Origin: Mycolicibacterium rhodesiae
Lineage (GTDB): Bacteria; Actinomycetota; Actinomycetes; Mycobacteriales; Mycobacteriaceae
Assembly (NCBI RefSeq): GCF_002086695.1
Contig: NZ_MVIH01000001.1
Coordinates: 310,001 to 374,000, forward strand
Reading direction: 5' to 3'
DNA length: 64,000 bases
This document shows positions 43,203-43,925 of the stretch, piece after piece; positions within the stretch are counted from its first letter, which is position 1; every line of letters starts with the position of its first letter. Made by a program: the position numbers and the translations under genes. Below the pieces are notes generated by a model. It saw only the letters and a program-made list of their open reading frames with translations, did no database searches and was not told where the DNA came from.

Positions 43203-43237
43203 TCAATGATATTGACATATATCAACCATGTTGATAT
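43203..43237. promoter_or_regulatory. Double operator between MarR and methyltransferase genes
   Basis: Two palindromes: TCAAT-GAT-ATTGA at 43203-43215 and ATATCAAC-CAT-GTTGATAT at 43219-43237. Arms are perfect in both, centres 19 bases apart. They fill the space between the two divergent starts (43201 and 43248), the expected site for a MarR dimer to block both promoters. Confidence 0.8.
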
Positions 43238-43247
43238 TCCTGGAGGT

Positions 43248-43925
43248 ATGAGCACAGAAGATCTCTTCGATTCCGCCTACCGTCAGTCTGCCCCGGAATT
43301 CGAGGGCTTCCGGCCGCCCTGGAGCATCGACGAACCCCAGCCGGAAATCGCCGCACTCATCGAGCAGGGCAAGTTCCACGGCGACGTCCTCGACGCCGGC
43401 TGCGGGGAGGCGGCGGTCTCGATGTACCTCGCCGAACGTGGCTTCACCACCGTCGGGCTCGACCTCTCGCCCACGGCCATCGAACTCGCCCGCGCGGAGG
43501 CGGCCAAACGCGGACTCGCCAACGCCAGCTTCGAGGTCGCCGACATCAGCAACTTCGACGGCTACGACGGCAGATTCGGCACCATCGTCGACTCGACGCT
43601 GTTCCACTCGATGCCGGTCGAACTTCGCGACGGCTATCAACGGTCGATCGTGCGCGCGGCCGCGCCCGGGGCGTCCTACTTCGTCCTGGTCTTCGATGCC
43701 GGAACCATGCCCGCCAACGGGCCGGCGCATCCGGTAACCGCCGAGGAGTTGCGCGCCGCCGTCGAGCCGTACTGGGTGATCGACGACATTCGGCCCGCGC
43801 GGATACACGCCAACGTGCCGGAAGAGATGGCCCATATGGTCGAGTTCGCCGGCGGCGATCTCCGCGACGAGCCCAAGGGGCGAAAGTCGATGGCGGCCTG
43901 GCTGTTGTCGGCGCATCTCGGCTGA
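43248..43925 (+). CDS. SAM-dependent methyltransferase (Rv0560c-like)
   Basis: 225 residues of the class I fold: motif I VLDAGCGEAAVS, motif II VGLDLSPTAIELA and an aromatic-type substrate region (TLFHSMPVELRDG). The N-terminal PPWSIDEPQPEIAAL is close to that of Rv0560c, whose M. tuberculosis form N-methylates certain drugs. ATG at 43248 with GGAGG only one base upstream. It is divergent from the MarR gene and is most probably controlled by it. Physiological substrate unknown. Confidence 0.85.
   Translation: MSTEDLFDSAYRQSAPEFEGFRPPWSIDEPQPEIAALIEQGKFHGDVLDAGCGEAAVSMYLAERGFTTVGLDLSPTAIELARAEAAKRGLANASFEVADISNFDGYDGRFGTIVDSTLFHSMPVELRDGYQRSIVRAAAPGASYFVLVFDAGTMPANGPAHPVTAEELRAAVEPYWVIDDIRPARIHANVPEEMAHMVEFAGGDLRDEPKGRKSMAAWLLSAHLG

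What the first reader, a model, noticed from the sequence alone, without database searches (positions are those of the whole stretch)
43203..43248. Rv2887-like MarR and its likely methyltransferase target sit face to face
In M. tuberculosis Rv2887 represses the distant Rv0560c drug-methylating enzyme. Here an Rv0560c-like methyltransferase is directly divergent from the Rv2887-like gene, and two palindromes with centres 19 bases apart fill the gap. This suggests an ancestral, self-contained repressor-enzyme module for aromatic or drug methylation.
Basis: partly seen in the sequence, partly recalled or inferred. Interest (0 to 1): 0.75.

Follow-up and report, generated by a model that had tools for sequence, protein, structure and literature searches.

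The report
Self-contained drug-methylation switch with twin operators
A repressor gene and a methyltransferase gene stand back to back around two palindromes 19 bases apart, and the same double palindrome recurs in most of the mycobacterial genomes examined, usually once and directly before this enzyme's gene, so this is likely the older, single-locus form of the aromatic-compound-sensing circuit that the tubercle bacillus runs from two distant loci.

Summary
In detail: an Rv2887-like MarR gene (42782-43201, minus) and an Rv0560c-like methyltransferase gene (43248-43925, plus) diverge across 46 bases holding two perfect palindromes 19 bp apart; 0 of 20,000 shuffles give two. The double site TRTCAR-N5-YTGAYA-NN-TRTCAR-N5-YTGAYA occurs in 133 of 198 genus genomes, once in 130; backward control 0; 69 of 75 listed places lie within 80 bp of a listed enzyme hit. 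Where the enzyme lies elsewhere, as Rv0560c does, the double site precedes it, while the stay-behind MarR keeps one site. The site 1 spacer carries a MarR -10-like AT in 61 of 62 paired loci, 0 of 56 relocated enzyme loci and 34 of 35 unpaired MarR sites. Trees nest the split arrangement inside the paired one: ancestral within the genus, not shown beyond. The published GC-rich Rv2887 footprint is not conserved; published derepressing promoter mutations match operator 2. In M. smegmatis MSMEG_2538/2539, inferred to be this pair, both rise under rifampicin. Binding, ligand and substrate are untested here.

The parts
42782..43201 (-). MarR-family repressor gene, orthologue of Rv2887 (139 aa)
   Evidence: Pfam MarR_2 5.3e-10; best solved structure Rv2887 5hsm, E 2.2e-41; in one clade with Rv2887 in a tree rooted on outgroups.
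43248..43925 (+). SAM-dependent methyltransferase gene, Rv0560c clade (225 aa)
   Evidence: Pfam Methyltransf_25 6.4e-16 and TPMT 3e-11; best solved structure Rv0560c 7bgg, E 6.8e-95; tree.
43200..43218 (.). Operator 1 (core 43201-43217 TGTCAATGATATTGACA); overlaps the MarR start codon; right half is the predicted -35 of the methyltransferase
   Evidence: conserved in paired, relocated and MarR-only loci. Binding inferred.
43219..43237 (.). Operator 2 (core 43220-43236 TATCAACCATGTTGATA); right half runs into the predicted extended -10 of the methyltransferase
   Evidence: absent upstream of the 30 unpaired MarR genes L086-L115. Binding inferred.
43212..43217 (+). Predicted -35 TTGACA of the methyltransferase promoter
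   Evidence: TTGACA in 59 of 62 paired and 51 of 56 relocated distinct contexts; the same -35/17 bp/-10 layout was mapped for Rv0560c (PMC3317779).
43235..43240 (+). Predicted -10 (TATTCC) with TG at 43232-43233; 7 nt to ATG, so the transcript is predicted to be leaderless
   Evidence: Spacing 17 bp; TG in 118 of 118 contexts, TAT at -10 in 39 of 62 paired and 53 of 56 relocated; site end to start codon 10 or 11 nt in 108 of 118.
43206..43211 (-). Predicted -10-like TATCAT of the MarR promoter inside the operator 1 spacer
   Evidence: AT at these positions in 61 of 62 paired contexts, 34 of 35 unpaired MarR sites and 0 of 56 relocated methyltransferase contexts. The spacing to ATG is short, so the start point is unsure.
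43957..44310 (+). 117-aa membrane-like protein 31 nt after the methyltransferase, possibly co-transcribed
   Evidence: No Pfam or NCBIfam match; found only in the closest relatives among the loci.
44435..45187 (+). pyrH, the synteny landmark (not part of the switch)
   Evidence: gene name recalled from its sequence

Best explanation
A MarR-type repressor gene and an Rv0560c-type methyltransferase gene are divergently encoded around two palindromes, and the repressor is predicted to bind both, switching off its own and the enzyme's promoters until a small aromatic ligand (likely salicylate-like) releases it. Shown by sequence: the two sites, their conservation, their place on a TTGACA -35 and an extended -10, and their presence at both genes when the genes are apart. 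Inferred: that MarR is the binder, that the right half of each operator doubles as the enzyme's core promoter, that operator 1 also holds MarR's -10 (negative autoregulation), and that the enzyme then methylates an aromatic or heterocyclic toxin. History, inferred from the trees and loci: the pair between the tsf-amiC and pyrH-frr genes is the older state inside the genus; enzyme copies carrying both operators were placed beside menG (Rv0560c's home) and beside a PF04072 methyltransferase gene, and in the lineage of Rv2887 the paired enzyme was lost, leaving MarR with operator 1 alone. G070 holds both an intact paired and an intact relocated copy, and G185 has the double site at both of its copies.
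For: Nearest solved structures are Rv2887 and Rv0560c themselves, whose repressor-target relation is published (PMC5526998 and PMC4301838). Double site: 133 of 198 genomes, backward control 0 of 198; of the 75 places that the capped list showed, 69 lie within 80 bp upstream of a listed enzyme hit. By hand count, it is present in 131 of 154 genomes with a strong Rv0560c-type hit and 2 of 44 without; the 2 are one locus with a broken enzyme frame (G197) and one where the enzyme is missing beside MarR (G039). Of the 23 strong-hit genomes without an exact site, 19 have it at up to 2 mismatches. Half-sites carry 1.78-1.97 bits per position, spacers 0.40-1.10. Of the 30 unpaired MarR loci L086-L115, fetched by protein similarity, 29 have one site within 1 mismatch and L095 within 2; none has the second site. 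Own genome: the single-site pattern has 3 places, two of them here, backward control 2. Arg42, which binds the salicylate carboxylate in Rv2887, is kept in 62 of 62 paired and 34 of 36 unpaired MarR proteins and is Glu in 11 of 11 outgroup ones; Arg57, Gln64, Arg81 and Arg89 are invariant in the 62 and the 36 (residues). Published mutations in TATATC (PM2) and just after the -35 (PM6, PM7) of the Rv0560c promoter raise basal activity (PMC3317779), which is where operator 2's left half lies in relatives. In M. smegmatis under rifampicin MSMEG_2539 rises by log2 6.348, the largest cytosolic change, and the MarR MSMEG_2538 by log2 1.128 (PMC8525676).
Against: A published DNase I footprint and co-crystal place Rv2887 on another, GC-rich 27-bp sequence (PMC5526998). 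No match near enough to be the tubercle bacillus turned up in 396 genus genomes, so its two upstream regions were not read here. Four strong-hit genomes have no double site even at 2 mismatches (G056, G072, G132, G157). In 3 of 62 paired MarR contexts the second site exceeded 2 mismatches by the script's measure, and the paired copy of G070 has only one exact single site. Six of the 75 listed double-site places have no listed enzyme hit beside them: at G093 C17 only a deleted remnant of the enzyme follows, at G039 the enzyme is absent, and G035, G171, G190 and G195 were not read. Thirteen more distant MarR genes of the family lack the site. Asp114 of the salicylate site is Glu in the window and in 55 of 62 paired MarR proteins, and Leu35/Phe38 are Phe/Tyr in 44 of 62, so the ligand may differ. 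The rejection of a single relocation is weak (AU p 0.041). That MSMEG_2538/2539 is this pair rests on adjacent locus tags and a table equating 2538 with Rv2887, not on sequence compared here; the proteome's p-values were not corrected for multiple testing.
Confidence: 0.8

Rival explanations
1. The palindromes are bound by some other regulator that controls both genes, and the neighbouring MarR is only a co-regulated passenger.
For: The published footprint for Rv2887 is a different sequence; five regulators were reported to bind near the start of Rv0560c (PMC4301838).
Against: The single site sits at MarR's own start codon even where the enzyme is elsewhere, 29 of 30 loci within 1 mismatch; MarR's DNA-contact residues are nearly invariant; of those five regulators only Rv2887 overexpression repressed Rv0560c.
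Confidence: 0.12
2. The divergent pair is a derived, secondary assembly in fast growers; the split Rv2887/Rv0560c arrangement is the original one.
For: The nearest outgroup genus (g8) has an unpaired MarR with one site at 1 mismatch and, in G431, an enzyme paralogue with one site about 80 bp upstream; many forks of both trees are weakly supported.
Against: In the MarR tree paired rows lie on both sides of the genus's first fork and the unpaired clade (97) is nested; the relocated enzyme rows lie mainly at two places in the enzyme tree, fewest changes 4 among site-bearing rows; G070 holds both a paired and a relocated copy.
Confidence: 0.13
3. The enzyme serves ordinary metabolism (for instance a menaquinone-like or siderophore-related aromatic), and drug or toxin methylation is a side activity.
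For: Relocated copies of one group sit beside menG; Rv0560c is called a putative benzoquinone methyltransferase in PMC4301838; overexpressing MSMEG_2539 did not restore rifampicin tolerance of a sigB mutant (PMC6529629).
Against: Strong inducibility, the absence of a strong hit in 44 of 198 genus genomes (hand count), and the PDB names 'heterocyclic toxin methyltransferase' and '2-heptyl-1-hydroxyquinolin-4(1H)-one methyltransferase' point to detoxification.
Confidence: 0.3

Closest known systems
Rv2887-Rv0560c circuit of Mycobacterium tuberculosis
   Same: Orthologous repressor and co-orthologous enzyme; same -35/17 bp/-10 layout at the enzyme; salicylate-site Arg42 kept.
   Different: There the two genes lie apart; here they share one 46-bp control region. 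The published footprint sequence is unlike these operators and is not conserved at Rv0560c-type loci (mean best 15.1 of 27 identities against 14.3 for shuffled footprints, 25 loci).
MSMEG_2538 / MSMEG_2539 of M. smegmatis
   Same: Adjacent tags of a MarR and a TPMT-superfamily gene, both raised by rifampicin; 2538 is listed as the counterpart of Rv2887.
   Different: Identity as this pair is inferred from tags and names; the sequence was not compared here.
MarR-family divergent repressor-enzyme modules in general (such as CrtR of Corynebacterium glutamicum, start of the abstract seen in the listing)
   Same: Divergent repressor and target gene.
   Different: Twin operators at a fixed 19-bp pitch placed on the target's predicted -35 and extended -10, and found at other loci together with the enzyme gene.

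Membership tests
Rv2887-type MarR repressor | MarR winged-helix family | tested here: met
   Pfam MarR_2 5.3e-10, MarR 9.6e-9
Rv2887-type MarR repressor | Same clade as Rv2887, apart from other MarR proteins of the family | tested here: met
   Rooted tree: 83 rows incl. window and Rv2887 together (94), outgroup of 11 rows 98
Rv2887-type MarR repressor | DNA-contact residues Arg57, Thr62, Gln64, Arg81, Arg89 | tested here: met
   All kept in the window except Thr62, which is Ser in the window and in all 62 paired rows, a like residue
Rv2887-type MarR repressor | Salicylate site Arg42 and Asp114 | tested here: inconclusive
   Arg kept, Asp replaced by Glu
Rv2887-type MarR repressor | Release from DNA by salicylate or PAS | not testable with these tools
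   Known for Rv2887 (PMC5526998)
Rv2887-type MarR repressor | Target DNA as in the published 27-bp footprint | tested here: not met
   The window's control region is AT-rich TRTCAR-N5-YTGAYA; the footprint is not conserved upstream of 25 Rv0560c-type loci either. I read this as against the footprint as a general operator rather than against orthology.
Rv0560c-type methyltransferase | Same clade as Rv0560c against paralogues | tested here: met
   100-row clade with SH-aLRT 99; own-genome paralogue L002 outside
Rv0560c-type methyltransferase | SAM-dependent methyltransferase domain | tested here: met
   Methyltransf_25 6.4e-16
Rv0560c-type methyltransferase | Promoter with TTGACA, 17 bp, extended -10 and induction by salicylate | tested here: inconclusive
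   TTGACA, 17-bp spacing and TG present; -10 TATTCC weak; induction not testable
Rv0560c-type methyltransferase | Methylation of heterocyclic drugs or toxins | not testable with these tools
   Only the PDB molecule names were seen

The most novel reading that the evidence does not exclude
The 36-bp twin operator is a portable control cassette that is itself the enzyme's promoter: enzyme copies left the ancestral repressor-enzyme module at least twice carrying both operators, the stay-behind repressor kept one, and the true Rv2887 operator in the tubercle bacillus is this TRTCAR-N5-YTGAYA tandem on the -35 and -10, not the published GC-rich footprint. The rifampicin-induced MSMEG_2539 of M. smegmatis is the same switch still in its ancestral form.
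Probability: 0.6. Interest if true: 0.7.

Novelty: new variant of a known kind. Interest (0 to 1): 0.6.

Why it matters
It names a concrete operator for a repressor that controls a drug-methylating enzyme in mycobacteria, in a place that conflicts with the published footprint and crystal DNA but agrees with the published promoter mutations. It shows how a neighbouring repressor-target pair could become a split circuit: the operator pair moved with the target and a single site stayed with the repressor. It also offers one common reason for the rifampicin induction of MSMEG_2538 and MSMEG_2539, and a safe laboratory species in which to test it.

Tried and rejected
Rejected: chance palindromes; the enzyme being one of the genus's other paralogues; palindromes absent in relatives; a large regulon in this genome (only one further single-site match, C45:371100, at the level of the backward control). 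The published 27-bp footprint was sought upstream of 25 Rv0560c-type loci and was hardly better than shuffled versions.

Led nowhere: a search for the tubercle bacillus itself in 396 genus genomes (nothing at E 1e-116); papers 10.1128/AAC.01341-15 and 10.1073/pnas.1606590113 are not held; searches for the HQNO methyltransferase literature gave nothing of use. One search is a wrong-frame translation from a slip of mine (P0001 is meaningless). I first counted G093 among the genomes with two enzyme copies; one search shows that its relocated copy is a deleted remnant, so it was dropped. My line between strong and weak enzyme hits was drawn after seeing a gap between 3.4e-80 and 8.0e-71. Loci L196-L216 were fetched by the operator pattern itself, so counts over all loci lean towards having it; the counts on L006-L085, L086-L115 and L116-L145 do not. 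Contexts identical over 72 nt were counted once; 21 of 168 enzyme rows had more than 2 mismatches to the double site and were left out of the context counts.

Full report
What is there. The window is G000:C1:310001-374000 of a 6.0-Mb genome, mycobacterial by its named relatives. A 139-aa MarR gene (42782-43201, minus) and a 225-aa methyltransferase gene (43248-43925, plus) diverge with 46 nt between start codons. Their nearest solved structures are Rv2887 (5hsm, E 2.2e-41) and Rv0560c (7bgg, E 6.8e-95; PDB names 'heterocyclic toxin methyltransferase' and '2-heptyl-1-hydroxyquinolin-4(1H)-one methyltransferase'). Two perfect palindromes, 43200-43218 and 43219-43237, lie 19 bp apart centre to centre. 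Of 20,000 shuffles of the 54-bp region, 654 gave one such palindrome and none gave two.

Conservation. One scan of named genomes with the methyltransferase returned 80 loci, L006-L085 (257 relatives were found and the best 80 kept). In 49 of 80 a MarR gene diverges from the enzyme gene; in 31 it does not. The double site is present within 2 mismatches in 78 of 80, exact in 72, and in 49 of 49 paired loci; the two misses are Nocardia L068 and L082. In L068 the first 30 codons of a MarR gene remain next to the enzyme. Loci without a neighbouring MarR include M. nebraskense, M. colombiense and M. scrofulaceum, and most show TATCAR-N5-TTGACA-NN-TATCAG-N5-TTGATA directly before the enzyme's ATG.

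The split circuit. Searches of 198 genus genomes gave the 30 MarR loci nearest Rv2887 (L086-L115) and 30 enzyme loci nearest Rv0560c (L116-L145). Of the 30 enzyme loci, 27 carry the double site within 2 mismatches (misses L141, L142, L145) and 5 are paired. Of the 30 MarR loci, 29 carry one site within 1 mismatch at the MarR start codon and L095 within 2, and none carries the second site. Larger regions around 20 of these MarR genes show an amidase gene (called amiC here) and tsf beside MarR in 20 of 20; pyrH appears within the fetched stretch in 13 of 20 (families). Relocated enzyme genes of the Rv0560c group lie beside menG (demethylmenaquinone methyltransferase) and many also beside a small DUF732 protein that I liken to Rv0559c from recall; a second group lies beside a PF04072 methyltransferase gene (3.1e-70). 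Among 56 distinct relocated contexts, 24 are menG-type, 23 PF04072-type, 8 other and 1 near pyrH.

Specificity. The exact double-site pattern occurs in 133 of 198 genomes, once in 130 and twice in 3 (G093, G115, G185); the backward control is 0 in all 198. Of the other 6, G093 C17 has only a deleted remnant of the enzyme behind it, G039 has lost the enzyme beside MarR, and G035, G171, G190 and G195 were not read. Counted by hand, 131 of 154 genomes with a strong enzyme hit (E at most 3.4e-80) have the exact double site and 2 of 44 others do: G197, whose enzyme frame is broken beside the pair, and G039. Of the 23 strong-hit genomes without an exact site, 19 have it at up to 2 mismatches; G056, G072, G132 and G157 do not. 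In this genome the single-site pattern occurs at three places, two of them here; the backward control occurs at two, so no wider regulon is indicated.

How it would work. Over 62 paired and 56 relocated distinct contexts the half-sites carry 1.78-1.97 bits per position and the spacers 0.40-1.10. The right half of operator 1 is TTGACA in 59 of 62 and 51 of 56; 17 bp on, the right half of operator 2 supplies the TG of an extended -10 in 118 of 118, with TAT at the -10 in 39 of 62 and 53 of 56. The start codon follows the sites by 10 or 11 nt in 108 of 118, so I predict a leaderless transcript. The operator 1 spacer, read towards MarR, has AT at a fixed place in 61 of 62 paired contexts, in 34 of 35 unpaired MarR sites and in 0 of 56 relocated enzyme contexts. 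I read this as the MarR -10, kept only where MarR is transcribed from the site; its distance to the ATG is short, so the exact start is unsure. A repressor on both operators would therefore cover both promoters. Arg42, which holds the salicylate carboxylate in Rv2887 (PMC5526998, passages), is kept in 62 of 62 paired and 34 of 36 unpaired proteins and is Glu in 11 of 11 outgroup MarR proteins; Asp114 is Glu in the window. An aromatic acid ligand is likely, its identity open.

History. In the enzyme tree (109 rows, quick method, SH-aLRT only) 100 rows, with Rv0560c and the window, form one clade (99) apart from paralogues including this genome's own copy at C52; relocated rows lie mainly at two places and the fewest changes between paired and relocated among site-bearing rows are 4. 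Holding all relocated rows together is rejected only weakly (AU p 0.041). In the MarR tree (96 rows, few columns), rooted on 11 outgroup rows, paired rows lie on both sides of the genus's first fork and the unpaired clade holding Rv2887 (97) is nested. G070 holds an intact paired copy by amiC-tsf and an intact relocated copy by menG, though its paired copy keeps only one exact site; G185 has the double site at a paired and at an unpaired copy. So the pair is most simply ancestral within the genus. Beyond it the link may be older but not paired: in genus g8 the MarR genes of G402 and G431 have one site at 1 mismatch, and in G431 an enzyme paralogue has a single site about 80 bp upstream. Thirteen more distant MarR genes of the family lack the site.

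Against the literature. PMC5526998 (abstract, passages and section 9 seen) reports a 27-bp GC-rich footprint upstream of the annotated Rv0560c start. That sequence is not conserved upstream of 25 Rv0560c-type loci (mean best 15.1 of 27 against 14.3 for shuffles). PMC3317779 (abstract, passages, sections 11 and 15 seen) maps the promoter downstream of that annotated start: TTGACA, 17 bp, TATAta with TGA before it, and an inverted repeat over the -35. Mutating TATATC (PM2) gives high constitutive activity, changes just after the -35 (PM6, PM7) raise basal activity with induction kept, and changing the -35 itself (PM1) abolishes induction. Those elements line up with operator 1's right half and operator 2 in relatives. 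PMC4301838 (passages) reports Rv2887 binding near Rv0560c and repression on overexpression.

A living example. In M. smegmatis, MSMEG_2539 ('thiopurine methyltransferase') is named among the most highly rifampicin-induced genes after 20 min (PMC6529629, passages). In a proteome, MSMEG_2539 shows the largest cytosolic change, log2 6.348, and the MarR MSMEG_2538 is in the same top-ten list with log2 1.128 (PMC8525676, table rows; p-values uncorrected); 2538 is listed against Rv2887 in PMC11129820 (table row). That these are this divergent pair is my inference from adjacent tags, names and that table. Overexpressing MSMEG_2539 did not restore rifampicin tolerance of a sigB mutant, so drug protection by the enzyme is not shown. 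My searches (titles, abstract starts and some passages seen) showed no paper in the held library that describes the twin operator or joins these genes to the Rv2887 circuit as a module; most subscription papers, among them two on Rv2887 (not held), could not be read.

Verdict. Binding, ligand and chemistry are inferred.

Noticed in passing
window 39217-42780: An amino-acid permease (weak, below-cut-off likeness to GABA and tyrosine-tyramine antiporters) and a copper amine oxidase lie beside the MarR gene, converging with it, and keep this place in a number of relatives. Whether they belong to the same aromatic chemistry is open.
   Followed up: partly
window 43957-44310: A 117-aa membrane-like ORF with no Pfam or NCBIfam match follows the methyltransferase by 31 nt and was found only in the closest relatives.
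   Followed up: partly
L068 5892-5981 (Nocardia sp. SYP-A9097): Only the first 30 codons of the MarR gene are recognisable beside the methyltransferase; L082 has no significant MarR match there, while L074 (N. miyunensis) keeps the whole pair. These Nocardia copies sit inside the mycobacterial enzyme clade, so transfer between genera is possible.
   Followed up: partly
L256 129-260 (G093:C17): An exact double site beside menG-type neighbours is followed by an enzyme remnant that keeps little more than the first and last codons, an internal deletion.
   Followed up: partly
L258 4606; L259 4275 and 4310 (G091): Six genomes of 4.6-5.1 Mb have four to six MarR homologues; in the one read closely, the enzyme has a TGTCA-type double site and a MarR gene has two single sites 35 bp apart some 200 bp upstream.
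   Followed up: no
G000:C52:112467-113111: A second methyltransferase of this superfamily (54% identity) in the same genome has no operator and falls in the paralogue clade.
   Followed up: partly
G431:C1:492788, 503466 and 673221: Three further perfect single sites in a genome of genus g8, with a backward control of 0, might mark a wider regulon there.
   Followed up: no
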